From Limnomonas spitsbergensis (taxonomy: Eukaryota > Chlorophyta > Chlorophyceae > Chlamydomonadales), in the NCBI GenBank assembly GCA_037349105.1, contig JAYJMM010000112.1, positions 4,610,501 through 4,674,500 of the forward strand: 64,000 nt of DNA, given 5' to 3'. How positions within the stretch are numbered: position 1 is the first letter of the stretch; each line of letters starts with the position of its first letter. Of this stretch, positions 7,659 to 33,822 are shown one piece after another. The notes under the pieces are model-generated. The model saw only the letters and a list, made by a program, of their open reading frames with translations. It was not told the DNA's origin and made no database searches. The position numbers were made by a program, and so were the translations under genes.

Positions 7659-7662
7659 GACC
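7659..7662. repeat. Target-site duplication GACC, left copy
   Basis: GACC immediately precedes the left end (TGTCGCACC) of the composite element. The same four bases immediately follow its right end (TGTGACA) at 33819-33822. This defines the outer limits of the insertion as 7663-33818. Confidence 0.7.
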
Positions 7663-7899
7663 TGTCGCACCATAAAGCAGTAACTGCAATACTATGGTAA
7701 ATACCGTAAACTCAGTCCGGTCAGGACACCTTAGAGAGGTGTCCTCTACTCACAAATACGGTACATCACCGTACACTCATGCTCCTTGTACTTCAGACAA
7801 GAGCTTGTTAACAAGATAACTGTAACTGGAAGTCCCTAACTGGATGTCTCTGCCTAGAAGTCTCCGTCTCGTGGGTACCGCCCCTACTACTTTACTCGC
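7663..7899 (-). repeat. Repeat B2 of the giant element
   Basis: This segment runs from TGTCGCACCATAAAGCAG to CTACTACTTTACTCGC. It is repeated at 8530-8544 plus 15693-15910, except for a 4-base difference (ACTCAGTCCGG here, ACTCCGG in B1). It overlaps A2 by the shared CGC at the junction. Confidence 0.85.
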
Positions 7900-8527
7900 G
7901 ATGTGCGCTTCAGGTCCGTGGCGGACTTCTTTCCTCACGGCAGTGACGGACGCCTACGGGCAGGCTCAGTGACTACACACTGGCTGCGAGTGCTCAGCGA
8001 GTTAAGCAGCTCTTCTGGCTATTTGGTTGTATGGCAATTGACTAAGGGAACACAGGCCTTCTGGCCGTCTGGGCGCGATCCAGCTGGGCTATGTTAAGGG
8101 CACTTACCGCGCGTCTCGCGGTGAGAGTGACGGGACGTAGACTACGTACTTCTTCTTTTGCAGGGTCTCGACTCTCTTACTGAGGTACTTGTCTCCAGCT
8201 ATCTCAGCTGAGGCTGAGGTAGTCTTGACTCGGGCTAAGGTACTGACTTATATGAAAGCTGCTGGTCTCGAAGACGGCCGGTGCTTGTTACAAATAGAGG
8301 TCTGTCCTTTAGAAAGGGACGAAGTAACTAGCCTAGGCAATTGCCGGGATACAGGGACCCGGCAGGCCCAAATCAGAGTACGGTACAATCTGTCAAATCA
8401 ACCTGCGTAAGCGGGTTTCTAGGTCTCAGCTCAAATCCGAGGACTCCGCAGAGAAGCTGCGGAGGCCCCGAGGCCGCTAACTGCGGTCTGAACGGTTCTG
8501 TCACGTATACTGTAATATACTGTGACA
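7897..8527 (-). repeat. Repeat A2 of the giant element
   Basis: This 631-bp segment from CGCGATGTGCGCTTCAGG to ATATACTGTGACA is nearly identical to 33188-33818. I see only GACTACG versus GACTGCG and TTCTGTCAC versus TTCTATCAC. A2 and B2 together form an 865-bp unit with TG and CA ends. Confidence 0.9.
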
Positions 8528-8536
8528 GCTGTCGCA
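8521..8536. other. Palindromic A2/B1 junction
   Basis: The junction reads TGTGACAGCTGTCGCA, a near-perfect palindrome centred on AGCT. The CA end of one repeat block and the TG start of the next are separated by GC only. This is what a junction of two LTR ends, or the joined ends of a circular intermediate, would look like. Confidence 0.7.
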
Positions 8537-8544
8537 CCATAAAG

Positions 8545-8947
8545 TGTAATGGTCATGTAACCAGTACCCCAGAATTACCAGTCGCTGACGCGACCTGCCT
8601 TACGTTATCGGCGCTTACGCTCCATACGGAAGTTGCAGGGTCGCCTGGCAAGCCCAGACCAGAACCCTCACGGGTTAAACCCTGCACCTCCCATATAAGC
8701 GAGCTCTGCTAGGCATCGGGAAGTCTCAGACGAGATCAATCCATCAGGCTCAATACCTGACTGTCCCACTATCAAATCTCTAGTCTCCAGCAGTCTCCCC
8801 TCGTGAGCACCTAGTCCCCCCTCAGTCAACTCTCCGACTACTCGTCTACCCTCAACACCGTCCCGGACTCCCCTTCACGTTCCTCTACTAGTGAGTCCCT
8901 GTCTAGATATAAGAGTCCTGCCCCCTAGGGCACCTAGGACCTCTTCA
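8545..8947 (+). repeat. 5' LTR of the chromovirus
   Basis: The LTR is 403 bp, TG...CA. A TATA-like CCATATAAGC lies at 8691-8700 and a second (GATATAAGAG) near 8907, either of which could drive transcription. The copy at 15285-15687 appears identical. Confidence 0.92.
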
Positions 8948-8948
8948 G

Positions 8949-8961
8949 TGGTTCCAGAGCC
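8949..8961 (+). promoter_or_regulatory. Primer-binding site of the chromovirus
   Basis: One base after the 5' LTR the sequence reads TGGTTCCAGAGCC. Starting with TGG, it can pair with the CCA end of a tRNA acceptor strand, as expected for minus-strand DNA priming. I cannot name the tRNA with confidence. Confidence 0.6.
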
Positions 8962-9351
8962 TTATCGGTTCGATCCTGTCGCAGTTTCATTGACAGAACC
9001 CTGCCGTCGGCTCGAAAGAGTTTTGAGACACGCGCGCTGGGCAGTCGCGTCCCTTAGACCTGTCAGGGTTAAAACTATTCGAATTCCAGTACCGACCCCA
9101 GTCCAGTGTCCGGATCAGGGCCAACCCCAGAGCAACTCGACAGTATCTACTATTGGTCTGACAAGCTCGGCGGAGCCGACGGATTTCCAGCCCTTGTCCC
9201 GAGTCCCAGGCACGCACTTGTTGCGTTGACTGAGTCTAGTAAGTGTCGTAACTTGAGTTGTTCGACTCCGACGGTTTGAATTCCGTACACTCCAGTCCAG
9301 ACCAGTCATAAGCTTCCTGATTGCTGAACTTTCACAGTAATTCACAATCTA

Positions 9352-10851
9352 ATGGTCGCTAAACGAAACAAATCCAAACGCGCAGTGAACAACCTTCAAG
9401 TCGACAACCCAGCTCCTGCCCAGCTTCCCGCCATTGTCGTTCCCGACATGGTCGCTGCAGCACCAGCACCAGCACCAGCACCAGCACCAGCACCAGCACC
9501 AGCACCAGTACCAGCACCAGTACCAGCACCAGTACCAGCACCAGCACAAGCCCCTGTCCCAATTGCGGTAGCTGCACCGAGACCAGCTCTCCAGCCCATC
9601 GCTGTGGCTTCCGTGGCACCTGCAACATACGCAGCGGTGGCCAACCCTCGAGTCTTGATCACACCTTGCGTCGCTGGCTGCAGCACGGACCCTCTACCGG
9701 CCCAGCATACCTCGTCCTACATGCAGGACGATATGTTCGAGCAATTCAAGAAACAACTCAAGCAAGGTGAATTGCAACTCTTGCAGTCACTCTTAACCAG
9801 ACTAGATTCAACTGCTGTCCCAGCCCAGCCTGTTGTTACTCCTACCGTTCGTCTTGTCGGGAATCCTGTTACCAGTGTACCCACCCAAGTTCAAATCCCA
9901 GTACCTGTCAGACGCGAGACTGACTATCGTCGTCGTCCCCCAGCCTTGCCTGCACCAGGCCGGATGAACAAGCCGTTCTTCCAACAGTGCAAGAACAAGC
10001 CGAGATTAATCGCGATGAGCTTCGAGGAGCTCAGGCGCTGGCTGCTCGAGAACGGTCACCGCTACCCCGAGGACATGTCTGTCTTTATCGACGATCCCGA
10101 GGTCAAGGAGTTCTTAATGAACTACATCGAGTCCCACATGCTGTTCGAGCAAAACGAGTTCATCCTGGCCCTCACAAACTTCGTGTCCGGCGAGGTACGT
10201 TCAGCAGTTGACATTGCCCGCGAACAACTAGTCGGTCGTATGATCACCCAGGGTTCCCAGTCAGCCTCCCAGTACTCCCAGCAATTCCTGAACGTGACCA
10301 GACTCTTGCCCGACGAATCTCAAGCAACCTTGTGCGTCCATTACCTATCAGGCATGGATCCATCCCTGAAACAACGCTGCATTCTAGACAAGGATGGAAA
10401 TACCTGGCAATCCCTGCCAAACCTCATGAAATTCGCATATGTCGAGGACCTGCGAATGACCAGTGCACGTGCCTGTTTCGTACCAGTATCAAGATCCAGT
10501 TACACCCCAGTGACCAGACCCAGCTACCGCACAGATACCAGACCAGTGCACAAACCCGAGTACCCTGCCAAAACACAGGACTTCCAGCAGCCGCGACGCG
10601 CTCGGCTGGCACACACCGAGTCCGTTCCGAAGAGGAAGATCGAGCCCAGCGCCCAGACCAGCTCCGGGAAAGAGGCCAAAAACTTCAAGACCCCATTCGA
10701 GTCCTGCCCGTACTACAAGTACGTGGGTGCACTGAGCATCGCTGCGAAGCAATCATTGAACGAGTATAACCTGTGCTGGTACTGCCGGGCAGGTTGCCAC
10801 CAAGCCAAGAACTGCCCTGAGAAGAAGGAAAACAAGCCTCCTTCCCAGTAG
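9352..10851 (+). CDS. gag: Gag polyprotein of the chromovirus
   Basis: This 499-residue frame begins at ATG 9352. The N-terminal part is very rich in Ala-Pro and Val-Pro pairs (residues about 38-65), encoded by a run of CCAGCA and CCAGTA codons. A helical capsid-like region follows at about residues 205-370. A CCHC zinc knuckle closes the protein: CWYCRAGCHQAKNC, spacing C-x2-C-x4-H-x4-C, residues 475-488, where nucleocapsid binds RNA. The frame ends CAG TAG, and the same frame stays open after the TAG into Pol. Suppression of this single stop would give Gag-Pol. Length and order fit Ty3/gypsy elements. Confidence 0.93.
   Translation: MVAKRNKSKRAVNNLQVDNPAPAQLPAIVVPDMVAAAPAPAPAPAPAPAPAPVPAPVPAPVPAPAQAPVPIAVAAPRPALQPIAVASVAPATYAAVANPRVLITPCVAGCSTDPLPAQHTSSYMQDDMFEQFKKQLKQGELQLLQSLLTRLDSTAVPAQPVVTPTVRLVGNPVTSVPTQVQIPVPVRRETDYRRRPPALPAPGRMNKPFFQQCKNKPRLIAMSFEELRRWLLENGHRYPEDMSVFIDDPEVKEFLMNYIESHMLFEQNEFILALTNFVSGEVRSAVDIAREQLVGRMITQGSQSASQYSQQFLNVTRLLPDESQATLCVHYLSGMDPSLKQRCILDKDGNTWQSLPNLMKFAYVEDLRMTSARACFVPVSRSSYTPVTRPSYRTDTRPVHKPEYPAKTQDFQQPRRARLAHTESVPKRKIEPSAQTSSGKEAKNFKTPFESCPYYKYVGALSIAAKQSLNEYNLCWYCRAGCHQAKNCPEKKENKPPSQ
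10849..10851 (+). promoter_or_regulatory. Probable readthrough stop (UAG) between Gag and Pol
   Basis: Gag ends CAG TAG GAA and Pol continues in the same frame with no further stop until 14928. There is no ATG near the start of the Pol frame, so readthrough of the UAG is the simplest way to express Pol. Several retroviruses use a CAG UAG context for the same purpose. Readthrough itself is inferred. Confidence 0.6.
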
Positions 10852-13800
10852 GAATTTTTGCAGGAGGTATTCCCGGGTCCCCCTCCTGTCTCTAGATGTC
10901 ATGTGTGCACTGCAGTTGAGAATCACGTGTCTGACTTGATGAACTCTAGCTTCCTGACGTACGACCGAGTGATTTGTAACGAACATTTGAATTGTACCTG
11001 CACGCTTCCAGTCATTCACTCCAACTCTCCAGACAAACACCAGATTTACGTTGCAAAAACCAGAAGCCAAGCCAGGCTTTATTTGAACAACAGACCCAAC
11101 ACCAGTTCATGTCTTCTAGTTTCCTCCAGACAAGCAGCAGGATTACAACCGCTACTCCAACACTCTTTCCTAGTCAAGAAATACGAATCCAGTTCAGCGC
11201 TTGGTACCGCTATGAATAAGGGTATGAAACCATCCCCAGTACTTGCCTTTGTAATCCCAGCTGATACAAGAGAAACAGCCCAGTGTCGAGTTCTAGCCAA
11301 AATACAAGTTGATGATCGAGTCCAGATATTGCATACCAGCCAAGACAAGGATGTAAAACAAGATGGAAATCACCAAGATGGTGATGACCAGCCCCTAGCA
11401 GCAACCTACCACGGCCAAGCACATGGCAAAAACCTCAAGTGTCTATTTGATTCGGGGGCATCCTCATGTTTCATGGGAGCCAAACTTGCCAAGAAACTCG
11501 GACTCCAGATTCGTTCAAGTAAATATCGAGCAGTGGCCACTGCGGCTGGTCGAGACTGTACTGTCCTAGGTTCTGCGAGTCTCACTGTTACGTTCGGCCG
11601 GACTGACTTTGAAGCTACAGTTCACATCCTCCCAGCGTTTCTCGATACCATTGATTTAATCATTGGCGAAGACTTCATGAAAACACACTCTTGTAATTTG
11701 CAGTACAGCCCAGACCAGTCTAGTCTCATGACCATCACTGACGGGGTCGTTCATGAGGTCTTGAATTCGTGTGTTTTACGTGGCACAGGTGCAGTACAGG
11801 TTGCTCATGCTGTGAAGACCACTTCTAGCCCAGCCGATCCGACCCATGACAATAACGCTGGACAGTGTGACGCTGAAGACGAATCCCGACCATGCCGTAC
11901 ACATACGAAGACCGATCAAATCCCAGCTGGCCTTGCAGCCAAATTACTCAAGTCTGGTCGCCACCGAGCATTCTTAGCTGTATTGACACCACAGGCTAGC
12001 GAACCAGACGAGGAGTTACAACCAGTACCAAATCCAGAAGGAGAACTAGACCATAAAACCAGTCGAGAAAAACTAGCAAACATGAACCATGTGCACCCAG
12101 ACCAGCGTACAGCGATTACTTCACTGATCGACGAGTACGATGACATTTTTTCAGAAACCCCTCGAGCTGGCGGAGCGAAAGTCCCACCTCTAGAGCACAC
12201 GATCGATCTGGTCGCTGGCGCTAAACCACCTTTTCGCAGGAACTTTCGTCTCTCTCCAGCCGAGTCTGAAGAACTCAAGAAACAGGTTGCCGAGCTACTT
12301 GACAAAGGAATCATCACCCCTGTCAACAGTCCTTATGGAGCCCCAGTCTTGTTCATCAAGAAACCAAATGGAGGACTTAGGTTCTGCCTTGATTACCGAG
12401 CCTTGAACGAACTAACTGTCAAACTACGCTACCCACTACCAAGGATCGATGATCTTCTAGATGCAGCTCGCGGAGCTTCATGTTTCTCTTGTCTAGACAT
12501 GGCAGGTGGCTTTCACCAACTGCTTATTTCCGAGGAAGACCAGCCCAAGACAGCTTTTGCTACACCCTTCGGCCATTATGCATGGCGTTGCCTGCCAATG
12601 GGTCTTTCGAACGCGCCCAGTCAATACCAGAGCACTGTCAATAAAATCTTTGCTGATCTAGCATTCGTCCTCATTTACATTGATGACATCATGATCCTGT
12701 CCCAGACACCAGAACAGCACCTCCAGCATTTAAGACAAGTGTTTGACAAAATACGAGAATCAGGACTGCAGGTCAAATTTTCCAAGTGCAAATTTCTGCA
12801 GGCTCAAGTCAAGTACCTAGGGCACATTCTTTCGAAAGAAGGTGTGGCTGCTGACCCAGACAAAATTCGAGCGCTTACCGAGTGGGAATTCCCGACCAGT
12901 GCAACAGGTGTCTTGCAATTTCTAGGCCTAGCAAATTACTTTCGCAAATTCATTCCGAACCTCTCCAGGCTGGCAGCACCCTTGTACCATTTGACCAAGA
13001 AAACCGTCCAGTTCTCAGGAGGAGCTGACGCTCTGTTGGCTTTTCAAGCTATCAAGGAAGCGTTAGCTTCGCCTCCAGTTCTTGCATACCCAGATCCAAA
13101 CCAATCGTACGAACTCGTTTCAGATGCCTCCATCACTGGATGTGGTGCAGTGCTTACGCAACAAGGTCGACCTGTCGCGTACTTCTCTGCCAAGTTCTCA
13201 CCTGCCGAGCGCAATTACACTACTGGCGAACAAGAACTCCTTGGAATTATCAAAGCTCTCAAGGAGTGGCGATGCTATCTAGAAGGCAGCAATGGCCTAA
13301 ACATTGTGACTGATCACAACCCCCTGACATTTTTCTCCAAGCAGCCCACCCTGTCACGTAGGCAAGCAAGATGGAGCGAGTTCCTATCTCGATTCGAGTT
13401 CACTGTGAAGTACCGACCAGGTGCTACCAACCCAGCTGATTCCCTTTCCAGGTTGCCACACCAAGGACCTGCCCATGCTGCAATGCTATTTGCAATCACA
13501 GTTAACGAGTCATGCCCAGATTTCATGCAAAGAATCAAGAACGAGTCTAGCATTGATCCAGAATTCAAACTTTCCAGTAAAACTCGAGAATGGTCCTTTA
13601 GCAATGGCTACTGGTCTCATGCAGGCCTAGTCATTATCCCAGTAGCACTTCGACAAGAAGTCATTCGAGATCACCATGATTCACCCCTTGCAGGACATTT
13701 CAATTGGAAGACAACACTGGACCACATCAAACGCCAATTTTGGTGGCCCTCAATCCAGGCAGATGTACAAAAGTACGTCTCATCATGTGCCTCATGCCAG

Positions 13801-14928
13801 AGGAACAAGTCTGCAAACAAGAGGCCCTTTGGTCTAAACCAGCCACTAGAAATCCCTGATTCCAGATGGCACACTGTCACCATGGACTTTGTGTTTGACT
13901 TGCCCCAGTCAGCCAGTGGTCATGATGGCATCATGGTCATTGTGGACAAGCTTACAAAGTTTGTTTGTCTAGCCCCAGTCAGGAAATCTAGCACATCTGA
14001 AGATGTTGCTCGAGTTTTCATCTCACATGTATTCCAGCATCACGGTTTTCCTAGAAACATCATTTCTGACAGAGATGTTCGATTCACTTCGTCATTCTGG
14101 AAGACCATGTGTCACCGCCTTGGTGTACAGCCCAGATTTTCAACTGCTTTCCACCCCCAAACAGATGGTCAAACAGAGCGAATGAATCGAGTCGTCGAAG
14201 AAGTGCTTAGGCATTTCATTGATGGAAACCATGTCACTTGGGAAGAACTCCTACCAGTTGTTGCTATGTCCATTAACAATGCCAAGACCAGTACGACCAG
14301 GCACACCCCGTTCTACCTGAACTGTGGACGCAACCCGTATACCCCTTTGTCAATCGACATTCCAGACAAGCAAATTCCAGCTCTTGATTCAGTCTTCAGT
14401 GACCTGGATGACACTCTAGTTCAAGTTCAGAAACTATTACGAGCTGCGCAGGATCGCCAGTCGTCGTACGCTGACACGCGCTTCCGAGCACCTCACACTT
14501 TTCAAGCAGGTGACCAAGTTCTCCTGTCAACAAGAAACTTCAAGTTCCAGACCGGAGTTAAGAAACTTCATCCCAAGTATATCGGCCCAGTGACAATCCT
14601 GAGTTTAACTTCTGGTGGCAATGCTGCTAGGTTGCAACTACCCGAGAATTACACTCGAGTTCACCCAGTCTTCCACGTGTCACTCTTACGACAGTTCAAG
14701 CCCAGTACCAGTTCAAACCCAGTACCTGTCGAGCCTCAAGTCGTGGATGGTTTACCATTATACCAGGTCGAGTCGCTCTTGTCACATCGCATTCGACGAG
14801 TCGGCAAAAAGCGAGTCAAGCAGGTCCTAATCAAATGGCTTGGTTACGATGACACTCACAATTCATGGGAGCCACTCAAGAACCTGACTCCTGAATTACT
14901 CCTTGACGCTCAAAACCTTTTTGAGTAA
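10852..14928 (+). CDS. pol: Pol polyprotein of the chromovirus (PR-RT-RH-IN-chromodomain)
   Basis: The frame continues from Gag after the TAG, about 1358 codons. Numbering residues from the TTG at 10858, the domains in order are: aspartic protease with FDSGASSCFM (Asp198 in DSG); reverse transcriptase with GLRFCLDYRALN and the catalytic YIDD at 607-610; RNase H with VSDAS near 755 and TDHNPLTFF; integrase with an H-H-C-C zinc site (HDSPLAGH ... CASC, about 939-980); and the DDE core (D in TMDFVF, D in ISDRD, E in QTERMNR). At about 1301-1356 a chromodomain (YQVESLLSHRIRR ... IKWLGYDDTHNSWEP) would direct integration to modified chromatin. All catalytic residues I can check are present, so the element may be active. 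Confidence 0.95.
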   Translation, partial: EFLQEVFPGPPPVSRCHVCTAVENHVSDLMNSSFLTYDRVICNEHLNCTCTLPVIHSNSPDKHQIYVAKTRSQARLYLNNRPNTSSCLLVSSRQAAGLQPLLQHSFLVKKYESSSALGTAMNKGMKPSPVLAFVIPADTRETAQCRVLAKIQVDDRVQILHTSQDKDVKQDGNHQDGDDQPLAATYHGQAHGKNLKCLFDSGASSCFMGAKLAKKLGLQIRSSKYRAVATAAGRDCTVLGSASLTVTFGRTDFEATVHILPAFLDTIDLIIGEDFMKTHSCNLQYSPDQSSLMTITDGVVHEVLNSCVLRGTGAVQVAHAVKTTSSPADPTHDNNAGQCDAEDESRPCRTHTKTDQIPAGLAAKLLKSGRHRAFLAVLTPQASEPDEELQPVPNPEGELDHKTSREKLANMNHVHPDQRTAITSLIDEYDDIFSETPRAGGAKVPPLEHTIDLVAGAKPPFRRNFRLSPAESEELKKQVAELLDKGIITPVNSPYGAPVLFIKKPNGGLRFCLDYRALNELTVKLRYPLPRIDDLLDAARGASCFSCLDMAGGFHQLLISEEDQPKTAFATPFGHYAWRCLPMGLSNAPSQYQSTVNKIFADLAFVLIYIDDIMILSQTPEQHLQHLRQVFDKIRESGLQVKFSKCKFLQAQVKYLGHILSKEGVAADPDKIRALTEWEFPTSATGVLQFLGLANYFRKFIPNLSRLAAPLYHLTKKTVQFSGGADALLAFQAIKEALASPPVLAYPDPNQSYELVSDASITGCGAVLTQQGRPVAYFSAKFSPAERNYTTGEQELLGIIKALKEWRCYLEGSNGLNIVTDHNPLTFFSKQPTLSRRQARWSEFLSRFEFTVKYRPGATNPADSLSRLPHQGPAHAAMLFAITVNESCPDFMQRIKNESSIDPEFKLSSKTREWSFSNGYWSHAGLVIIPVALRQEVIRDHHDSPLAGHFNWKTTLDHIKRQFWWPSIQADVQKYVSSCASCQRNKSANKRPFGLNQPLEIPDSRWHTVTMDFVFDLPQSASGHDGIMVIVDKLTKFVCLAPVRKSSTSEDVARVFISHVFQHHGFPRNIISDRDVRFTSSFWKTMCHRLGVQPRFSTAFHPQTDGQTERMNRVVEEVLRHFIDGNHVTWEELLPVVAMSINNAKTSTTRHTPFYLNCGRNPYTPLSIDIPDKQIPALDSVFSDLDDTLVQVQKLLRAAQDRQSSYADTRFRAPHTFQAGDQVLLSTRNFKFQTGVKKLHPKYIGPVTILSLTSGGNAARLQLPENYTRVHPVFHVSLLRQFKPSTSSNPVPVEPQVVDGLPLYQVESLLSHRIRRVGKKRVKQVLIKWLGYDDTHNSWEPLKNLTPELLLDAQNLFE

Positions 14929-15272
14929 CCAGCACTTGTCTAGTATTCAAGGTCCATACCCCTAGTCCCAGATCGAGACCTAACTCTAAACCAGACCAGT
15001 CAGATTTTTTTTTCTTTCTTTCTGAACCTTGTCTTGAATTCCTTTGAGAACCGATACTGCCCAGCCTGGCAAGCTGCTCAGATTTCACTTCTCGTTATAA
15101 TTCAACCTAGATCCAGACTTGAGTTAATTTTTCCAGCGGACAATCAAGTACTCTAGCAGTTCCAAGATAACTTGCTCCAGATTTCATGTTTGCATTTAAT
15201 TGATTAAATACTGCAACAATCCGAGTTCCAGTTCACTAACATTTACCTTCCACCGCGCTCGGCACGCAGCCT

Positions 15273-15282
15273 AGGGGGGAGG
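15273..15282 (+). promoter_or_regulatory. Polypurine tract of the chromovirus
   Basis: AGGGGGGAGG lies two bases before the 3' LTR. This is the expected site for priming plus-strand DNA synthesis. Confidence 0.75.
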
Positions 15283-15284
15283 TA

Positions 15285-15687
15285 TGTAATGGTCATGTAA
15301 CCAGTACCCCAGAATTACCAGTCGCTGACGCGACCTGCCTTACGTTATCGGCGCTTACGCTCCATACGGAAGTTGCAGGGTCGCCTGGCAAGCCCAGACC
15401 AGAACCCTCACGGGTTAAACCCTGCACCTCCCATATAAGCGAGCTCTGCTAGGCATCGGGAAGTCTCAGACGAGATCAATCCATCAGGCTCAATACCTGA
15501 CTGTCCCACTATCAAATCTCTAGTCTCCAGCAGTCTCCCCTCGTGAGCACCTAGTCCCCCCTCAGTCAACTCTCCGACTACTCGTCTACCCTCAACACCG
15601 TCCCGGACTCCCCTTCACGTTCCTCTACTAGTGAGTCCCTGTCTAGATATAAGAGTCCTGCCCCCTAGGGCACCTAGGACCTCTTCA
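15285..15687 (+). repeat. 3' LTR of the chromovirus
   Basis: This is a 403-bp copy of 8545-8947, with no difference that I can see. It is followed by TAAAG, the target duplication, and then by the rest of repeat B1 of the host element. Confidence 0.92.
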
Positions 15688-15692
15688 TAAAG

Positions 15693-15910
15693 CAGTAACT
15701 GCAATACTATGGTAAATACCGTAAACTCCGGTCAGGACACCTTAGAGAGGTGTCCTCTACTCACAAATACGGTACATCACCGTACACTCATGCTCCTTGT
15801 ACTTCAGACAAGAGCTTGTTAACAAGATAACTGTAACTGGAAGTCCCTAACTGGATGTCTCTGCCTAGAAGTCTCCGTCTCGTGGGTACCGCCCCTACTA
15901 CTTTACTCGC
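15693..15910 (-). repeat. Repeat B1 of the giant element (main part)
   Basis: The part of B1 beyond the chromovirus runs from CAGTAACTGC to TTTACTCGC. The remaining 15 bases lie at 8530-8544. At 15911 the sequence leaves the repeat and enters the internal region. On the minus strand the internal region ends GGGGAGCGGGGG right at this boundary, which resembles a polypurine tract. Confidence 0.85.
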
Positions 15911-16670
15911 CCCCCGCTCCCCAGCGTTAAGCCCTCCAGGCGTGCGCGGGGAGCCGGAAAAGGGGTGGTACTGAAATAAACTTCTGAAAAAATATGTACG
16001 TAGAAGCTTAAATCATCTGCCGTAAATCTGCCTGGTTCAGGCCTTCTGCAAATCTGCCTGGTTCAGGCCTTCTTCAACCAGAACTTTAAAAGAAAAAAAC
16101 CACCGAGTTTCGGCTGAAGCGCAATGCGCAGCACCCTACAAATTCGAGCTGTTCAGCCCACTACTGGCTAGCAAACAGGGAAATGTCAAAGTTATCAGGT
16201 CAAGCGAAGAACAACCGCTGCTCTCGCCCCACTGCGCCATAGCCGCCTGGTCCTTAATGGCCACAGGAATTGTGCGCCGTAGCAGCGTGATCCGCCTCCT
16301 ACTGTGCTATCATTGCCCGAGTTGACTAATTCTCCTCGCTCATCATTGTCATAACAAATGTACTACCGTAGTCTTGCTGCTATGGTGTTTTGAGAAACAA
16401 ATTTTCACTATGCTGCTGCGATAGCTTTAACTCCACTCCTGCATCTTCAGTCTTCGGTCCGCTGGCTGCCGGCCCACTGCCTGCCGGGTACTAGGACAAG
16501 CCGCGCTGCGTCTGCATTTCTGCTCTGTAGGTGCCTGCCCGCTCCTTGCCAGTTACGGCGTGGGTGACGTCACGTGCTCAGCGGCCTTGCCGCTCTGGGC
16601 TCGGCCTCAGGTCTCGGTAAGCTCCTCAAGAGCTGACTCCTCTTCCTCCCTTGCTGCTTCTTTGGCCACC
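15911..16670 (-). other. 3' untranslated region of the giant element
   Basis: About 760 bp lie between the Pol stop and repeat B1. There is a 27-bp direct repeat (AAATCTGCCTGGTTCAGGCC, at about 16024 and 16051). No LTR-like duplication of the 5' leader is present. The purine-rich GGGGAGCGGGGG (minus strand) sits at 15911-15922. Confidence 0.6.
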
Positions 16671-19600
16671 TTAGCCCTTCTCGTAACTGCTCTCGGGGTG
16701 ACATTGGCCTCTCCCCGGCCAGTGGTGTACGAGATGTCGTACAATCCGTTCGCCATTGGTCTTGCGATGCCCCGCTCCATCTGTTGTTGCTGGGTTGGTG
16801 GCCATGACTTCCACCTCAGGCCTGTCCATGACGTTGGCCTCCTGGGCTGTCCTGGCAGCCGCTCTGGCTGCCGGGCTCGGCCGCCCCTGGACCTGCACAC
16901 TGCAATCCTCTGCAGCGGGTCCAGCCCTTGCTGCGGGCTCAGCTCCCTTGTCCTCAGGCGCGCAAGTTGGGCACAACCACTCGCCCTCAGGCACCTCCTC
17001 AAGTACTGGTACCAAGCAATCCATGTGCCAACCTGTATTGCAGGCATCACACAAAAGCATCACCTCTCCGCGGTCGGGCAGCTGGCACACCTCGCATGAC
17101 AGGCTGTTATTGGGTCTGGTTCCACTGAAATCAACCACTCCCCTGATGTTGGGCAAGTGGCATGGAGAACAATTGACTGCATTCTCTATAACGGTGAGGC
17201 CATCTGCCCCTTCCAACACTAAGGTTCCCGTCACCCCCAGTGTTTTTACCCTGAGGATCTCAGGCCTGGCCTTGGGATCGAGGCTGCGTCGCTCTGATGA
17301 ATACTTCACATACACGTAATCTCCCTCTGCAAAACGCCTGACCTGGGGGACATACCCTCCCCCACGAATGCGTGCATATCGCAGCTTGTCGCGGTGCTGC
17401 GCAATTTTTAGATGCTCACCCGCGACTGGCAGTGCCTCTTTGATCCTGGCCACTCTGGCCAAGAGCAGGTCTGCTGCCTCCTCTGCTGTTGCCACCTTGG
17501 CTGTGCTCCAGAGGTCCGCCCCCACTCTGGAGGGGAAGGTGGGTCTCTGTCCGAACAGCACCTCGTACGGCGCCATGCGCGTGGCCTGCTGCGGCGAGCA
17601 TCGGAAGCCTAGGGCTACCCAGGGCACCATCTTGTCCCAGGACTCGTCGCTGCTGCCCTCCTCGCAGCACTTGCGCAGGCCTGCCTTGAGTGTCTGGACA
17701 GCCCTCTCTGATAGCCCGTCTGCCTGGGGGTGGTTGGCAGACGTGGTGCGGTGGTCAATGAAGCAGTCCAACAACATGTCCTGAAATTCACCCTGGAACT
17801 CTGTTCCCTGGTCTGTCACCACTTCTGCGCATCCCCCGAATCGTGCAACAACATTTTGAAAGAATGCCAAGGCCGTCACATCAGACGCCTTGCTTGGAAT
17901 GGGGATCAACTCCACCCATTTGGAGTAATGCTCCACACACACCATCACAAACCGATTGCCTCTGGAAGTGGTCGTAAATGGACCACACAAGTCCACTCCC
18001 CACCGGAAAAACAACCCCTCAATGGGTAGCGGGTGCAGGTTGGGCTGTATGTGATTGAACGTGGACGCCCTGGCCCTGTCACACACACCACATTCCTGCA
18101 CTGCCTTCTTGACTGCTGCTCTGAGTCCCCGCCACCAATGCTGCTGCATGACCATGAAGGCCGTGCGGTGGCTGCCAAAATGGCCCGTACCGGCATGGGC
18201 TGTCTGGATTACTGCAAGCCTGTCCTCTGGCCTGGGCACCACACATCGTCTACCGTCGGGCATGAGTCTCATCAGTACTCCTCCCCTCTCTGATTCCCAC
18301 TGGAATGGCGCCGCTCTGCGCTGTATTCTGGTCTGTTCTCCTAGCTCTGTTCCCTGAACATATGTCTTCTCACGGAGAAACCTCAATACAGGTTCGTCTG
18401 CCCACACATCAACTCTGACCGATGGTCCTGCAGGGCATCCTGGCGGGTCCTTCTCACCCTCTGTGACCCTGGTCACCACGCTTTCGACCACAACTTGCCC
18501 CTCAGGCGTGTTCCCACCTGGTTCCTGTGCTGCGTCGGCCCAGTCTGCCGCAGCCGATTCTCCCAGGCACTGTCTGTATGACGCGGCCACCTCTCCGCTG
18601 CCAGAGCATGCGTTTCCTGCATTAGCAAGGGCATAGTGGCTGGACATTAAGGTTGCACCCAGCACCGGGTCCCTGTCCGGGCCTGGCAGCCTTGCCCTGC
18701 GCTTCAATTCCTCTGGTATGATTTTAGCACACTCAAGTGCCACATTGAGCCATGCGCCTAGTGCCCATGAATCCATGCACCTGCCCAAGGCTGCCCTCCT
18801 GGCCGCCTCTGGGAAGTCTGGGCGCGGCAATGTGGACCCCACAGCGTACCCCATGGCACGCTCACGCTCGTTTGCATTGGGCTCCTGCAAGTCCCCCATG
18901 GATCTGTACACCATCCCATTCTGCCCGTTCCGAAAAGAATATGACGAGGGTGTGGCCATCAGACACGGCAGCACCTTCCTGGGCTGTCCTGTTACGTTGA
19001 TGCGGTACCCCCCATTGTCCGGGCATGAGACGACCTGGGCCTTGCTACCCTTGTCTAGAATGTCGTCTACTATCCCCCCGTGGGGTCTGGTTGACGCACG
19101 AATCACAAACTCAATATCTGCTGCAGGGGCGGCGATATTCCCCCAATAGTTGCGGGTGCGGTGGGCGTAAGACCCCACCTGCGCTGCGTCAAACAGCGCC
19201 GGTGTTCCCAGAATCCTGCACACCTCCTGAAAAGCCTCAACACTGGCCTTCACACTCTTCTGATTCAACTGCATTGCCACATTCTCAATCAGGTACGCTG
19301 GCGGCCTAGGCCCCTGCAGGAACTGTAGTGTACCCAACAGCTTGACTAACGGGAAGAAAGACTTGCTTCTCTCTCCCTCGAGCCCACGCCCCTTGCCTGC
19401 TGACGAGAGGTCCTGGCACTCCCAGCCTGCTACCATGAACCACTGGCGCCCCTCCTGGGCGCCTGCCTCCTGGAGGTGCTTTGCCGTAATGGCATACACA
19501 ACCTGGGGCAGCGCTCTGAACGCCTTATCAAACGCTTTGACCGGAAACAACTGAGGGTATCTCCTGTGCAACTGCACCAGGCGACCCCCTGCGATCTCTC

Positions 19601-28000: not shown

Positions 28001-29074
28001 ATATCCGTACACCACATAAATGAACAGCACCCCATACAGATCTGCCCCTGCATTGTCTGTCGTGCGGATCTTCTCATCCGTCCTGATCAGCTCTGCCCCC
28101 ATGGCGACTAACTGTTCTGCAATGTTGACTGTGATCACATGACAGGAGCACGCTGAGTCCATGAGGGCCTTCTGAGCCACCAGGACCTTTCCTTTGACCA
28201 TTAGGCCCACACATTGCTCCAGGTTGCTTCTGTCGTTCTTAAAATACTGCAGCCTTGGTGCAGCTGTGACCACCTTGCTTTCCTGCCTGCCCTTACTGGC
28301 CTTACCCCTGTGGTCTTCTGAACCCATGGGCATAGTGGTAAATGACAGCGCCGTCAGCCTCTCGTTCAACTTGAACACCTGCAGTCGGATGTCAGACATA
28401 TCGTCAGCTAATTTGCTCAAAACCAGTCTCTTTGCTCCCTTCCTGGAGGCAGGTTCCACGAGCCTTTGCTCAGGTTCCTCCTGTGGACAGGGTTCTGGCA
28501 AGAATGATCTAGGACGAGCGTTGTGAGCCGCCTGCTTGAATCCTGCGGATTTGGGCACGAGCCCAACCTGCGTCATGAGTGCTACAGACTCGCTGAGCAT
28601 CTCTGCCATAGTCTGTTGCCAGCCCTCTGGCTCGGCTTGCCCCGTTGGGCTGCTTAGTTGAGACACGTGTGCCGCTTGCTGAGCCTGACCCCCCTGGCCA
28701 GGCCCCGGCCGTTGGTACTGCCTGTTGTTCTGATTCCGCTCGTACGGTCTGCCTGCAGGCTGACCCTGCTGCGGCCTTGGTGGGAGCGGGTACTGCTGCT
28801 GCTGCGGCCTGGGCTGCCCAGCTGTAATTTCAGCAGCAAGTGGCGTTGGCCTGCGCTCATCCCTGGGTCTGGGTGCCCTGCAATCCCTGGCCAGGTGCGC
28901 CGTGCTACCACACTGGTAGCATGCCTTGACTGCCCCTGCAGCGCCTTCTGCGCTGTAATTTGGTGCTCCTGATTGATCTGCCCAGGTAACTCCTCTGGGT
29001 TTGTCACTCCGCTGTTGCTGGGCAGCTGCTGCTCCTGCGGGGTTCCCTGCCCCTTCAAGGCGTGTCCGCATCAA
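21968..29074 (-). CDS. ORF2: nucleocapsid/protease-like protein with a giant extension of unknown function
   Basis: This 2368-residue frame follows Gag in the same frame after one TGA; the first ATG is at 29071. A CCHC knuckle (CYQCGSTAHLARDC) lies at about residue 52. A retropepsin-like stretch follows (ALMDSACSCHVI, Asp near 306), with DSA in place of the usual DSG or DTG. Further on come a variant knuckle CVLCGEPGQHSPEEC (about 581), a Leu/Gln-rich predicted coiled coil (about 700-790), and another canonical knuckle CFNCQKPGHFANAC (about 983). The remaining 1300 or so residues are acidic, Trp-rich and repeat-poor, and I recognise nothing in them. In Ty3/gypsy elements the protease is normally followed closely by reverse transcriptase; here about 2000 residues intervene. 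An uninterrupted frame of 7.1 kb argues that it is under selection or very young. Confidence 0.85.
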   Translation of the reverse strand: MMRTRLEGAGNPAGAAAAQQQRSDKPRGVTWADQSGAPNYSAEGAAGAVKACYQCGSTAHLARDCRAPRPRDERRPTPLAAEITAGQPRPQQQQYPLPPRPQQGQPAGRPYERNQNNRQYQRPGPGQGGQAQQAAHVSQLSSPTGQAEPEGWQQTMAEMLSESVALMTQVGLVPKSAGFKQAAHNARPRSFLPEPCPQEEPEQRLVEPASRKGAKRLVLSKLADDMSDIRLQVFKLNERLTALSFTTMPMGSEDHRGKASKGRQESKVVTAAPRLQYFKNDRSNLEQCVGLMVKGKVLVAQKALMDSACSCHVITVNIAEQLVAMGAELIRTDEKIRTTDNAGADLYGVLFIYVVYGYGGPNAIMEPTVVRVVKTPPDAYEHLVGNPEFLKYNGVLEAAGRLTLRPRDGPQTVRRVRDLTLPLVLASPAGGYQAAAVAWAGIRCGFAERERWPAARVEEEHEPLLQHAMATHAGAAMRTDQKVGQSRGTAAGAGRSTADASRSSREDPQETASRPRQCGQAQAAVPREGKVGAKAAASQPSQAAAQAEANAEVAMALKAESKPAYEKEIIRRCVEASPRYLCVLCGEPGQHSPEECDQRIRKILQKPAAGPAAQGTSPGAKRRVGFGGAAAARAAPAGSSRRSEVQVPGKGERAGAAEGGVREDAPAAAEGTQGITANRGQEELVGREESEVSEESEEEEVHDRRTPKYMHVLRLQQQVELLQQDVRAREELLFRQAAATIEYLRLQQVRWTGLQDANIRLTEVQQQYILRADQLRALYANLGNQQAGEPLQSTIPGDPELAEHMEAMFQTVAEFAKEDEDLSQEKLQEQEQQATGQQEPGGSGGARQASGETRVRHRGSTPDDAVHTETRERSRSAQRARSAERRGAVPTPEARTQRPDRDDSFDRPRGRRQQSPSGDRGSQPRGRSQERGTGSHARPYQLEQRMQDRRGTSGQSPPGRAQAGRSWMGGQRNVLGPHDGGVCFNCQKPGHFANACPEQGEASQPGDSSQFDRSRAAGGPERSWGVRGPGRSQEASEDNMRRAYEAAKEVSFEEWKRQQETAGPSELPGPPGRPGPAGQSYNSRWVSQERHTCMMSIHEGFGQNAATQVVSYQAAAMPVTFQVVPEGQVAQQRHHWQMVVEALAMNHYGTRPAGSARSMAHAVEFLRNLQQRGCPAPCEGWPGILQQFLDKEWDIYNAQMDEFERFEQEAGLQHRVDEWETSSSGDGTSASEEGYEPQAPLTVREEEAAMLCPGTPEGNAVTGGEVAGAAAGTRNGLSRQDHHPGAKGAAAMSPEDNTAGAVRTHRSTTSRSSAARWEEEDRGLQSSRSRGERPAAGNEDSQFTQAGTGHRGRSGSRGRVRPEPDPPRLPESRCFVQWYRLGEEMPEASSSEAMITLPAQSKDGLCRLQNHRLLEGRSQTCVNIAATMQAVARLIFPWDAVTAVLLGAALKGFIQPSTRMEDYMQRGWSRHPIYAYSVGEMVDLAVKEGITAVAAADRAHPDVPDSARTEGVWQGAQPGFMRTPWAEDCVRQLMEHPALRDRAFYVPVQALGGHGGGDRSEDGTYSGAGLCHADRPRRCEATVEASVTIPRMVAGQAVPWGMDPGEARAAIPVQQLVTYYYEELEEGEMPVSAAWIHMHASRDDMPVFLFARCEGNVAITRCASVDEAEFHAHTHARGADPATWAVMLMALQRVLLPGQLSAAMRHVWGVDDQWAPLEMTDCPTWPYGAQRSPADGPMWEDEEEFARSPFAVERLEACVHQWVRWERRAWRDNRASSVVPYWQANSMTVQLWRQAHPAGVRTLHPLFRGAGSDTYIEELEELRTQPVPGRWRVGRWGSRYWDPAAISDGPIQDTYQEPTEQGHVAFVTTLGATASSWEWLEPMEDMEVSALEAETGDRAEPQTAPDSTSRPLVGDLDSRKPWSSNALRPSHEGRGLLGEENEDPSEGLPSLVQDSESEDEWGADRSPCPARISLTRTDAGDADGMEEPSNAGPGPGSPVWGREEDLLQLRQEWMREVAQEQAAMEERRTRRAEIERSSKVALEEKAHKVAVGVNPRQAADQCAGEPKGAAAGKASSRSTGDAQTSPPAQAAAREPWGDPAAYSTERWVAVLRHFVDELDVLRRQEMGQQEASQEASLVFRLRMLPQPDPNPRMGGYSRAVRELQEELTERISALNKMGAKGVDTQQSSDSRSSQARTSRGEDLARRAASARATMRQGCGPEEPAGAGSSKTVQRAIHRQERLAQGSTGQIPGAGPERAGAAWADTAELRGKKSKKARRRAGKAQRAAEDRNRGSRPGMDCPVLPLRISQVDLEITWASGQQRPAQSAEPCVQPAEHLPQKPTRQMPACRGLLTCTAFKGILTLRGRSS

Positions 29075-29077
29075 TCA
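29075..29077 (-). promoter_or_regulatory. Single in-frame stop (UGA) between Gag and ORF2
   Basis: The mRNA reads CAG TGA TTG ATG. Gag and ORF2 share one frame with only this stop between them. The capsid-like region is upstream and the first zinc knuckle downstream, so readthrough would make a normal Gag. Termination and restart at the nearby ATG is also possible. Confidence 0.6.
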
Positions 29078-32000
29078 CTGTCCTGTCCTCTCCTTCCTCG
29101 TTCTGTTGGACTGCGTCTCCCCCTGGCCAGGCCCACTGGCCATTTGTTTGAGGCTTGCGCCTCCTAGATCCCCCATTTCCAGGGCAAACTTCTCCCACAG
29201 CACCACCTGCTGTGTGAGTACTGCAATCTGATCTTCGTCTGTCATGCTGAGGTACCCTGGGACGGTCATAACAAACTTGCTCAGTTTGGCCTTAGCGAGC
29301 GCTGGAAGTCCATCATGGAACAGATGCGAGACCGAGTGCCTCCTGCCAAAGTGGTCCACTGCATCCCTTGAGATCTGCAGCAACTCTGCTGTCGACAGCA
29401 CTCTGTGAGCAAATGCTTCCACCGTCTCCTCTGGCTTGACGTCAGGGTCGAGAGTGGTCTTCACCCCTAGCCTGAGGTTGGAAATGGCTGTCCTCTCATC
29501 CGAGGTTGGCTTTCCCACTTCTGCTTGAACCACTTTGATCCACAAGGTAAGCAGTGAGGCCTCACAACACTGCTCCTCTGCTGGGGCAACCCACATCCCC
29601 CTTATCCTTTCTGCTTCTCTGGCAGCCCTGTCTCCTGCATGGGGCGCCGCCCTGATGGCTACCATCAGTGGCCCCACGCTAGCCGGCTTGCTGTCCCATA
29701 GCTTGACCAGTGATTTCACCAACATCGTCATGGCTGATGGCGACTGGCACGACCCAGCTATTTCTCCGGCCACCACAGCCAGCGCTGGCGGGTCATCTGA
29801 CAGCGCCAGCCTGTTGTGCGATCCCCAATATCCACATGCCTGGCAATATTTCCTGGCTGCAACCGCGCCTGGGTGCGACATATCCAACACTGGCACGTTG
29901 CCTTGGATGGCTGGGATTTTGGTGAATTTGGCTACCCCTGCCAGCTGCAGGACCATCTGCTGCTGCATCTGCAGGTTCACCCTTGCCTGCTCCCTCTCGA
30001 GCCTCTTCATTTCCTGGTCGCTGGACTCCTGCCTGGCTCCTGGCCTGCGTCTGTCCGCTCCTCCTGGTCCCGAATCAACTGATTCTGACCGCGACCTAGA
30101 TCCTCCACCATCGCCCCTCGATGGGCTGCGACCTGAATGGTATCTGCTGTGTCTGTAATAATCCTCTTCCGGATCATGATCTTCTCGTGATGGCTGCCTG
30201 CCTGCCCTTCCTGCAGAGCTTCTACTTCCCTCGGGTGGCAGCCGTTCTGATTCGCTTCTGACTGGTCTGCTGTCAGAGCCAGGCCTCCAAGACTGCTCTC
30301 TGCCCGGCCCTGCCTGTCCCCTGGGCAGCTCCTGGTCTTGCCGTTCCTGCCTCACCCCTCTGCTGTGTTCCGCTGGTCCCCTGGGTTGCTCCTGGCTTTG
30401 TTGGCTTGGCTGTTCCCTGCCATTTGCCTGCTCTCTGGGCGGCTCCTGGCTATGCTGGCTTGGATGTTCCCTGCCATCTGCCTGCCCTCTGGGCTGTTCC
30501 TGGCTATGCCGGTTTGGCTGTTCTCTGTTGTATGCCTGCCCCCTGGGCGGCTCCTGGCTCTGCCAACCTGGCTGCGTCCCGCCTGTGTAATTTCTGGCAT
30601 AGGAATCAGACTGCGTTTCCTCTCTGGCTTCCTGCATTCTTGGACCACTGCTCCGTGCGCTGCCTGCAGGCTCATTCCTCCTGGTTCCACTTGCTGTGCC
30701 CGTCTGCCTGTTCCTCAGGAATTCCTTGATGTAATCCACCTGGTTTTCCTGGCATGTGTTCTCTTTGTCCTCGACTATGCGTAGCAACGCATAAGACTCT
30801 TGCCTGCTTGCTCTGCGTGTTGCTGTGCCTTGCTCTGCCATCCTGGCAAGTGATCGGCTAGTCAACTCCGCCCTTTCGCTGGCGGCTGGACTGTTGGTTC
30901 TGGGCGCTTCCCTGCCCCTTGGTCGCCCTCTGAGGCTTGGCTCGCTGCTGACCTCGAAGGCCTCTGATCTGAGTGTTGGGGTTGGCGCGGCTCTTGCCTG
31001 CTGCTGCCACCTTTGCACCTCCCTGAGCTCCTCCGGCCGCTGCCCTGCTGTTTCAAATCCTTCCCATGCCTGGTCCTCCTCCTCTTCTGGCTCGGATCCA
31101 GGTTCCACCTGATTTCCTGTTACATCGTTGCACCACTCGTCTGCGAAGGCCTTAACAGCCAGTGCTGCTTCGCGTCCCGCCCTTCCCTTGGACACCTGTC
31201 CAAGGGCGGCTAACAGCGTTGCCCTGTCCTGCCCTGTGTGGGGGATACCCAGCATGGCCTTTGTTGCCCATCCCCGCAGATGATGGGCCTTGAACTCCTC
31301 GATAGCTGTGACCTGGTCCTGGAAATGCAAGAACGTCCTGGAGCAAACTTGCTTCCACAGGTCCGTTGCCCACTGCAAAATTCCTGCCCAACCGATCGGT
31401 TGCATATGTCCTTCTGACTCCCTTTCGCCGCACACTGCTCCCCCAGCCTTGGAGCGCTCTGGCTCACAAGGGCTGGTATCCTGCGCCCCTGATGGATCGT
31501 GAAAAAACCCTCGCAGGGTTTCCTTGTGGCTGTCGTCTTTCTGCGTCAGGCTGCTAGATCCCTCCTTGGATTTCTGCACAGGTCTGCCCACACTGGGCGG
31601 AAACCTGGACAGCGGTGTCCCATAGACTGTGGATCCAGCTCCTCTTCTAACCAGCACCCTGCGCGGTCGCAGCTGCTGCCTTGGGCGCAGTCCTGTCTTA
31701 GACTGCTGCCCCTTCTCTTCTTGAACTGGGTCTGACAGTTCTTCCTCGGATATTTGGTCAGCCCAGGGATTTCCTACCGGCACAGCTGACTTTTCCCTTT
31801 CCTTGCCGACCTGCGAGCTCTGCCTGCCCGCTGCTGGCTGGGGCTCAGCTTCCTCGTGTTTGACCCCTGCAGGCATACTCCTGGCCTCCATTTCCTCTGC
31901 TTTCATTCGCTGTTTGTCTGGGCAGGCTTTATCACAGCCTGCAACCTCTCTTGGTGCTGCGGCTTCCTCGGCCCTTTGATCCGGCTGACTGGGTTCGTCT

Positions 32001-33818: not shown

Positions 33819-33822
33819 GACC
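33819..33822. repeat. Target-site duplication GACC, right copy
   Basis: This matches 7659-7662 and closes the insertion. Confidence 0.7.

What the first reader, a model, noticed from the sequence alone, without database searches (positions are those of the whole stretch)
16671..21962. Retrotransposon Pol with a built-in DNMT3/DRM-like cytosine methyltransferase and a PHD finger
One uninterrupted frame encodes reverse transcriptase, RNase H, a full set of C5-methyltransferase motifs (I FEPFGG, IV with Cys849, VI ENV, VIII HRTRNYWGN, late motifs), DDE integrase and a complete C4HC3 PHD finger. From memory, cytosine methyltransferases have been found in retrotransposons of a few other eukaryotes, but the combination here with a PHD finger in the chromodomain position and a 19-kb element is, as far as I know, unusual. 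A plausible role is that the element methylates its own new copies, becoming silent and harmless to the host, and uses the PHD finger to select chromatin. That role is inference. The Pro-to-Glu change beside the catalytic Cys should be tested for activity.
Basis: partly seen in the sequence, partly recalled or inferred. Interest (0 to 1): 0.93.

Follow-up and report, generated by a model that had tools for sequence, protein, structure and literature searches.

The report
Methyltransferase retrotransposon with inside-out ends
A green-alga-type jumping gene carries its own DNA-methylating enzyme and a histone-reading finger, and its genomic copies look as if they were inserted through a cutting site hidden inside the terminal repeats, not at their ends.

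Summary
The 1763-aa ORF carries RT, RNase H, a C5-methyltransferase, DDE integrase and a PHD finger. The methyltransferase is DNMT3-type with unpermuted motif order, so not DRM; the Glu beside its catalytic Cys is the family norm.

DNMT3 in a Gypsy Pol with DIRS-like repeats is already published for Klebsormidium. Relatives with this Pol layout occur in Haematococcus and Monoraphidium, and 117 copies were scored in this 260-Mb genome.

The newer finding is how it seems to integrate. Copies read A-coding-B-GC-A-B. A self-complementary primer site abuts A and a polypurine tract abuts B, so the replicative LTR is B-GC-A. Yet insertions end at the B/A palindrome (GACA-GC-TGTC) inside that LTR, with exact 4-bp target duplications (15 of 15 elements). 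The other joint, A|B, holds 0-3 primer-site bases or other extras that arose separately (10 changes for 10 variant joints of 52): an LTR-LTR end-joining signature. A second family (Pol mostly 36-39% identical) has the same layout.

I infer that the integrase cuts an internal palindrome, as claimed in 1984 and later rejected for retroviruses. Enzyme activity and intermediates are untested.

The parts
7659..7662 (.). Target site duplication GACC, 3' side of element
   Evidence: GACC here and at 33819-33822
7663..7899 (-). B2, terminal copy of repeat B, ends ..GTGCGACA
7900..8527 (-). A2, second copy of repeat A; the A2|B2 joint (7900/7899) is the inferred LTR-LTR end-joining point
   Evidence: A1/A2 alignment; joint
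8524..8533 (-). GACAGCTGTC palindrome, B1|GC|A2 junction, inferred integrase cut site
8530..8544 (-). Last bases of B1, cut off from the rest by the nested chromovirus
8545..15687 (+). Nested ordinary chromovirus: LTRs 8545-8947 and 15285-15687 (100% identical over 403 bases), target duplication TAAAG; built-in example of normal LTR architecture
15688..15907 (-). B1 (main part) = start of the inferred replicative LTR (U3)
15910..15922 (-). Polypurine tract GGGGAGCGGGGGG just before B1
16671..21962 (-). Pol ORF, 1763 aa
16962..17096 (-). PHD finger (residues 1623-1667)
   Evidence: 2.6e-10
17727..18002 (-). DDE integrase core (rve, residues 1321-1412)
18066..18227 (-). Integrase H2C2 zinc-binding domain (residues 1246-1299)
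18708..19745 (-). DNMT3-type C5-methyltransferase domain (residues 740-1085); Cys849 codon at 19416-19418
20211..20516 (-). RNase H (residues 483-584)
20817..21281 (-). Reverse transcriptase (residues 228-382)
21968..29074 (-). Upstream ORF with a CCHC zinc knuckle (Gag-like, 2368 aa)
29075..32467 (-). 5' ORF, 1130 aa, no Pfam match at E <= 0.01, same frame as the next ORF across one stop
33165..33187 (-). Inferred self-priming primer-binding site TGTCCTTTAGAAAGGGACGAAGT, directly after A1
33188..33818 (-). A1, starts TGTCACAG
33594..33616 (-). Segment inside A1 complementary to the primer-binding site (23 of 23 nt)
33819..33822 (.). Target site duplication GACC, 5' side of element

Best explanation
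It is a Gypsy-type LTR retrotransposon of a green-alga-like host (host not identified) whose Pol gained a DNMT3-type cytosine methyltransferase between RNase H and integrase, and a PHD finger after the integrase. Reverse transcription is self-primed and yields linear DNA with the LTR [B-GC-A] at both ends (inferred from primer site, polypurine tract and concerted repeats). The A end of one LTR is joined to the B start of the other by end joining, as a two-LTR circle or across the gap after insertion (joint signature shown; timing inferred). The DDE integrase cuts not at the LTR ends but at the palindrome GACA^GC^TGTC inside the LTR next to the primer site, which would leave the usual CA ends with 2-nt 5' overhangs, and inserts them with a 4-bp duplication (ends and duplication shown; the cut inferred). 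The result is A-coding-B-GC-A-B. The methyltransferase probably methylates CpG in the new DNA, and the PHD finger probably reads histone tails for targeting (both inferred from homology and constraint).
For: Exact 4-bp duplications flank TGTCAC...GCGACA in 15 of 15 elements with both ends read, the window's included, in a solo A-B copy, and in two family-2 copies read by eye. Of 40 hits found from the B1 side, 28 besides the window's own were read and 28 are followed by GC-A2 (20, one with a point change; 8); 11 were not read. A1 best matches its own element's A2 in 12 of 13 elements, and B1 its own B2 in 6 of 7. A 23-nt perfect self-complement directly follows A1 in 10 of 13 copies, and a polypurine tract abuts B1. 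The A|B joint carries T, TG or TGT, the first primer-site bases, in 8 of 52 readable loci, and A or a 13-nt filler in 2 more; the tree needs 10 changes for these 10. Family 2 has other A, B and primer-site sequences but the same layout and, in two copies, primer-site-prefix joints. Methyltransferase: DNMT3A 6e-20 against 6.5e-10 for the best DRM; Cys849 in 105 of 106 aligned rows; pN/pS 0.086.
Against: No intermediate, RNA start or enzyme activity was observed. A two-LTR circle holds two B/A palindromes, so random cutting predicts A-B-A-coding-B forms. None was seen: of 29 A1 starts read (of 40 hits), 28 meet other DNA and not a B end, and the exception is a head-to-tail tandem. A directional step must therefore be added; I suggest that the left LTR becomes double-stranded first. 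Most joints (42 of 52) are flush, two variant joints (L030 T, L034 TG) are in sister copies, and L025 has a base change at a joint counted as flush. The palindrome was seen in one genome only. The pN/pS set is the 30 best of 117 by methyltransferase score and so biased towards constraint.
Confidence: 0.7

Rival explanations
1. DIRS/PAT-like mechanism: the internal B-A segment is a splint that templates circularisation, and A2-B2 is simply copied from the RNA.
For: The repeat order A-coding-B-A-B is the DIRS order, as the 2018 paper noted for KnitGypsy-Dnmt3.
Against: A copied A2|B2 joint should be inherited, but variants arise separately and mostly carry primer-site bases. The element has a DDE integrase, no tyrosine recombinase match in three ORFs, and 4-bp duplications.
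Confidence: 0.1
2. No circle (a variant of the best explanation): integrase cuts the palindrome in the left LTR of linear cDNA, both halves (A-body and a short B piece) are inserted, and the break between A2 and B2 is sealed by chromosomal end joining.
For: Could explain why the cut is next to the primer site. Family-2 copy C120 has lost the polypurine tract, B1 and A2 yet keeps an intact B end; copy C82 has short A and B ends around an inverted body.
Against: Deletions and inversions can also occur during circle formation or later. The B1-(A-B)x4 array at C124 is easier from multi-LTR DNA or recombination.
Confidence: 0.3
3. An ordinary LTR element (LTR = A-B, TG..CA) whose 5' LTR lost B and which gained B before the 3' LTR by rearrangement.
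For: A2-B2 looks like a TG..CA LTR, and a solo A-B copy exists.
Against: The arrangement is the norm: B1 abuts in 38 of 43 A2-B2 hits and GC-A2 follows B1 in 28 of 28 read. It also occurs in a second family, with joints made anew.
Confidence: 0.03
4. The methyltransferase domain has no catalytic role (structural, or RNA- or protein-binding).
For: Glu in place of Pro beside Cys; Pfam score near the cut-off; the Klebsormidium counterpart showed no activity in yeast, called inconclusive by its authors.
Against: Cys849 in 105 of 106 rows, Trp and Asn of motif VIII in 108 of 108 rows, window included; strong amino-acid constraint in a biased set.
Confidence: 0.2

Closest known systems
KnitGypsy-Dnmt3 of Klebsormidium nitens (de Mendoza et al. 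2018, PMC5890265; text parts 1-2, sections 9-10 and passages read; figures not held)
   Same: DNMT3-type domain in a Gypsy Pol; repeats described as DIRS-like; domain under purifying selection
SymbioDIRS-Dnmt3 (same paper) and DIRS/PAT elements
   Same: A-coding-B-A-B repeat order; DNMT3 in Pol (SymbioDIRS)
   Different: Tyrosine recombinase there; here a DDE integrase, 4-bp duplications and A|B joints made anew
Tf1/Sushi and Tcn1 self-primed chromoviruses (PMC6317226, passages read)
   Same: Reverse transcription primed by the element's own RNA (here inferred)
   Different: To my knowledge (recalled) those have conventional LTRs with integration at the LTR ends
Retroviral two-LTR-circle palindrome cleavage (PFV, PMC1180852 abstract and section 8; HIV-1, PMC1905944 abstract) and the 1984 Panganiban-Temin claim (passages of PMC11054761)
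   Same: A palindromic junction cut on both strands beside CA leaves 2-nt 5' overhangs, like 3' processing
   Different: There the palindrome forms at the LTR-LTR joint and linear DNA is the accepted precursor; here it is built into each LTR and the LTR-LTR joint ends up inside the 3' end

Membership tests
DNMT3 family | Closest to DNMT3 among solved C5-MTases, motif order I-IV-VI-VIII-X | tested here: met
   DNMT3A 6e-20, DRM 6.5e-10, HhaI 1.9e-8, DNMT2 1e-3; fold search top hits DNMT3B/3A; order read (motif names recalled)
DNMT3 family | Catalytic Cys in motif IV and EN in motif VI | tested here: met
   Cys849; C, E and N invariant in 9 aligned sequences
DNMT3 family | Branches within the DNMT3 clade in a tree with native DNMTs | not tested
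   No native DNMT3 reference sequences were obtained; two of the top PF00145 hits in the own genome look viral
DRM | Rearranged motif order (recalled) | tested here: not met
Ty3/Gypsy LTR retrotransposon | RT-RNaseH-H2C2-rve order in Pol | tested here: met
Ty3/Gypsy LTR retrotransposon | TG..CA ends with a short target duplication | tested here: met
   4 bp, 15 of 15
Ty3/Gypsy LTR retrotransposon | Identical full LTRs at both termini, bounded by primer site and polypurine tract | tested here: not met
   A alone at the 5' end, B-GC-A-B at the 3' end; so Gypsy by Pol, not by terminal layout
Ty3/Gypsy LTR retrotransposon | RT branches with Gypsy in a tree | not tested
   No RT tree was built; filed by Pfam domains and order only
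DIRS | Tyrosine recombinase | tested here: not met
   No such match in three ORFs at E <= 0.01
DIRS | Split direct repeats A-coding-B-A-B | tested here: met
DIRS | No target site duplication (recalled) | tested here: not met
KnitGypsy-Dnmt3 | DNMT3 in a Gypsy Pol with DIRS-like repeats | tested here: met
KnitGypsy-Dnmt3 | Sequence kinship with the Klebsormidium element | not tested

The most novel reading that the evidence does not exclude
A lineage of DDE-integrase retroelements whose attachment site is an internal palindrome of the LTR: each cycle joins the LTR ends by end joining and the integrase re-opens the DNA at the palindrome. That is a naturally fixed form of the integration route claimed for retroviral two-LTR circles in 1984 and later rejected, and it reached a DIRS-like repeat order by a different route from DIRS. 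The same elements carry a DNMT3 and a PHD module.
Probability: 0.6. Interest if true: 0.92.

Novelty: new variant of a known kind. Interest (0 to 1): 0.78.

Why it matters
If right, the precursor of integration and the ends of reverse transcription are separate in this lineage, which bears on how DDE integrases choose their DNA ends and makes the old circle-junction question testable in a system where the genome keeps a footprint of each event (the A|B joints). It also explains DIRS-like repeats in a DDE element without DIRS biochemistry. It shows that the RT-RH-DNMT3-INT-PHD module also occurs in chlorophytes, beyond Klebsormidium, which raises the question whether such elements shape host methylation.

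Tried and rejected
DRM or Dcm origin of the methyltransferase: rejected on profile scores. Glu848 as an inactivating oddity: it is the family norm. A-coding-B products (one-LTR circle) and A-B-A-coding-B products: looked for in family 1; 0 of 28 B1 hits read lacked A2 and none of 29 A1 starts read was of ABA type; in family 2 one copy, C120, does lack B1 and A2. Templated DIRS splint: weakened by the joint tree. IMG/VR scans: one with the Pol protein found nothing; one with the methyltransferase profile kept 80 of 115 hits, at 20-38% identity, which I take for phage enzymes and did not study. Host naming through rbcL and a genome-wide count of A|B joints: not done, the genome server was busy (for the first; 89, 92, 95, 97, 100, 103, 105, 106 for the second). 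The upstream 1500-nt pN/pS value (0.67) is not used because I judge that part badly aligned. The first spectrum is void (minus-strand loci unflipped) and was redone.

Full report
What is there. The minus-strand ORF 21962-16671 (1763 aa) is real. Pfam places RT at residues 228-382, RNase H at 483-584, DNA_methylase at 842-938, H2C2 at 1246-1299, rve at 1321-1412 and PHD at 1623-1667. The integrase acidic residues D, D and E are visible in the translation (34 residues between the last two by my count). Upstream in the same orientation lie a 2368-aa ORF with a CCHC knuckle and a 1130-aa ORF. Those two share a frame across one stop, and Pol follows in another frame. Of 117 scored copies (window included), 17 lie in an open frame of 5,000 aa or more, so the window copy appears interrupted at those two places. 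I describe this and mend nothing.

The methyltransferase. A single-sequence search of PDB gives DNMT3A at 9.4e-8. A profile of nine relatives gives DNMT3A 6e-20, DNMT3B 2.4e-18, plant DRM-type enzymes 6.5e-10 to 2e-8, HhaI 1.9e-8 and DNMT2 about 1e-3 (that 4onj and 4onq, listed only as 'DNA methyltransferase', are DRM-type is recalled). The predicted fold (pLDDT 78.7, pTM 0.83) matches DNMT3B/3A at E 2e-14. NCBIfam's dcm superfamily matches only below its cut-off. The motif order is unpermuted. Among the 107 database relatives plus the window, Cys849 is kept in 105 of 106 rows with a letter there, and position 848 is Glu in 88 and Pro in 13. The order RT, methyltransferase, HHCC holds in 68 of 73 scorable relatives, and a PHD-type motif follows in 84 of 107, the set including fragments. 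Pfam confirms RT, RNase H, H2C2, rve and PHD in one Haematococcus and one Monoraphidium protein.

Copies in the host. The genome is 260 Mb in 124 contigs. The methyltransferase protein finds 117 scored matches of 1037 candidates, at 95-100% identity, 112 without a stop inside. Across the 30 best-scoring loci pN/pS is 0.086 in the methyltransferase and 0.15 in the 1500 nt on the integrase side; the choice by score favours constraint. C/T differences are commoner at CG (0.050) than at CHG (0.032) or CHH (0.033), while C/A or C/G differences are nearly flat (0.036, 0.035, 0.031). CpG observed/expected is 0.55-0.57 in the element and 0.67-0.70 in three other parts of the window. This is compatible with CpG methylation but says nothing about which enzyme makes it.

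The repeat architecture. Self-comparison of the window shows two split repeats. In element orientation the order is A1 (33818-33188), coding, B1 (15907-15688, with its last bases at 8544-8530), GC, A2 (8527-7900), B2 (7899-7663). A chromovirus with identical 403-bp LTRs and a TAAAG duplication is nested in B1 and shows what an ordinary LTR insertion looks like here. The large element starts TGTCACAG, ends GTGCGACA and is flanked by GACC on both sides. Elsewhere in the genome, 43 A2-B2 hits were scored (40 of 2479 candidates), and 38 have a B1 copy directly abutting. The five others are the window copy (interrupted), the solo copy at C23, and three inner units of a tandem at C124. I paired A1 hits with 3' ends by contig, strand and distance; the fourteen further pairs with both ends fetched all have exact 4-bp duplications. 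A solo A-B copy has TTAG on both sides.

Reading the ends. Directly after A1 lies TGTCCTTTAGAAAGGGACGAAGT, the exact reverse complement of a 23-nt segment starting at position 203 of A; this holds perfectly in 10 of 13 copies, the others having 1 or 2 mismatches. Directly before B1 lies GGGGAGCGGGGGG. By the usual logic of LTR retrotransposons (self-priming as in Tf1/Sushi and Tcn1, PMC6317226 passages), the replicative LTR is therefore B-GC-A. A1 and A2 behave like LTRs of one element: own-element identity is 98.2-99.8% and is the best match in 12 of 13 (the thirteenth, C35, is 0.1% closer to its sister C26); B1/B2 are 97.8-100% in 7 elements and best in 6 of 7. Yet the integrated ends, TG of A and CA of B, lie inside that LTR, at the palindrome GACA-GC-TGTC. 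GACAGCTGTCAC occurs once in the window and in none of 100 shuffles.

The joint. If reverse transcription ends at the A end and the B start, the A2|B2 joint must be made after reverse transcription. In 53 three-prime loci, 52 joints could be read; 42 are flush (one of them, L025, with a base substitution at the joint, and L033 with one inside A), 4 carry T, 1 TG, 3 TGT, 1 A and 1 a 13-nt filler. T, TG and TGT are the first bases of the primer site. On a tree of the neighbouring A and B sequence (56 rows, tandem joints counted apart) the four T cases need four changes and the three TGT cases three; together ten changes for ten variant joints, no fewer than in shuffles. L030 (T) and L034 (TG) are sisters, so one shared start cannot be excluded for that pair. 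The B|A palindrome is constant in these loci apart from a point change in L113. Duplicated loci (L016/L017, and L032/L033) were counted separately.

A second family. Copies with a 2253-aa ORF encode a Pol mostly 36-39% identical to the window's (49% over one part of the methyltransferase), with a PHD motif in both copies looked at, C120 and C82. Their A and B differ in sequence and length (B about 62 bp). A G-rich tract abuts B1 and the B|A junction is again GCGACA-GC-TGTCACG in 5 of 6 copies read; the sixth, C120, has lost B1 and A2. A 15-nt self-complement lies at the A end. Two A|B joints read ..TACTTGTT+TAA+ATGTC (L139) and ..TACTTGTT+T+ATGTC (L141), where the primer site would begin TAAG; L142 has a different A side; L140 shows no B2 in the piece fetched. 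Two family-2 copies have 4-bp duplications by eye: CGAC (C120) and ACTG (C82, with short A and B ends around an inverted body).

Mechanism. Shown: ends, duplications, palindrome, concerted repeats, variable joints that are not clustered by descent. Inferred: self-primed reverse transcription to BA-ended linear DNA; end joining of A to B; a staggered integrase cut after CA on both strands, which would leave 2-nt 5' overhangs. Retroviral integrases can do this in vitro: PFV integrase cuts the palindromic LTR-LTR junction on both strands into products like 3'-processed ends (PMC1180852, abstract and section 8), and HIV-1 integrase is reported to do so as a tetramer (PMC1905944, abstract). In 1984 integration from an internal LTR-LTR junction was claimed for a retrovirus and later displaced by the linear-DNA model (PMC11054761 passages). 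Unexplained: the cut appears always at the palindrome next to the primer site. GC-A2 follows B1 in 28 of 28 hits read besides the window (11 of 40 unread), and 28 of 29 A1 starts read meet other DNA and no B end; the exception, L079, is a head-to-tail tandem. A thirtieth A1, at C101:616980, is itself interrupted by another copy and was not counted. A likely reason, from the order of reverse transcription (recalled), is that the left LTR becomes double-stranded long before the right one in a 17-kb body. A variant without circles (cut the left LTR, insert both halves, seal the gap by end joining) fits as well.

Known and new. KnitGypsy-Dnmt3 (PMC5890265) already combines DNMT3, Gypsy Pol and DIRS-like repeats, so the kind is known. 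A 2019 opinion paper speaks of DNA-methylase-encoding Gypsy and DIRS elements in green algae and charophytes among others (PMC6338049 passages), and a 2025 survey mentions DNMT3 embedded in retrotransposons (PMC12344493 passages). In nine literature searches, of which I saw the listings and the passages named here, I found no report of a DDE-integrase element integrating through an internal LTR palindrome, nor of the PHD combination. The library holds open-licence papers only. I file it as a new variant of a known kind.

Noticed in passing
8545-15687: Nested chromovirus with LTRs 100% identical over 403 bases, one 1356-aa Pol and a 5-bp duplication TAAAG; a very recent insertion.
   Followed up: partly
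L023 (G000:C124:8402200-8406200): B1 followed by four tandem A-B units of 862 bp, with an intact TTAC duplication around the whole element.
   Followed up: partly
G000:C16:1681407-1686261 and C61:18738-23591: Two A-B ends in opposite orientation 4 kb apart, present on two contigs (a duplicated stretch).
   Followed up: no
L001, L002: The two strongest PF00145 matches in the genome lie in prokaryote- or virus-like gene neighbourhoods, probably endogenous giant-virus pieces (label from memory).
   Followed up: no
61078-64000: Long array of a 25-bp tandem repeat.
   Followed up: no
L124 4954-5092 and L123 3500-3562: Family-2 copy at C82 whose ends are inverted A and inverted B pieces around the body, with ACTG duplications.
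   Followed up: partly
P0015 residues 1184-1223; P0024 residues 2352-2407: Relatives carry further modules: a G-patch domain and a PTM/DIR17-like Tudor domain (the latter below its Pfam cut-off).
   Followed up: no
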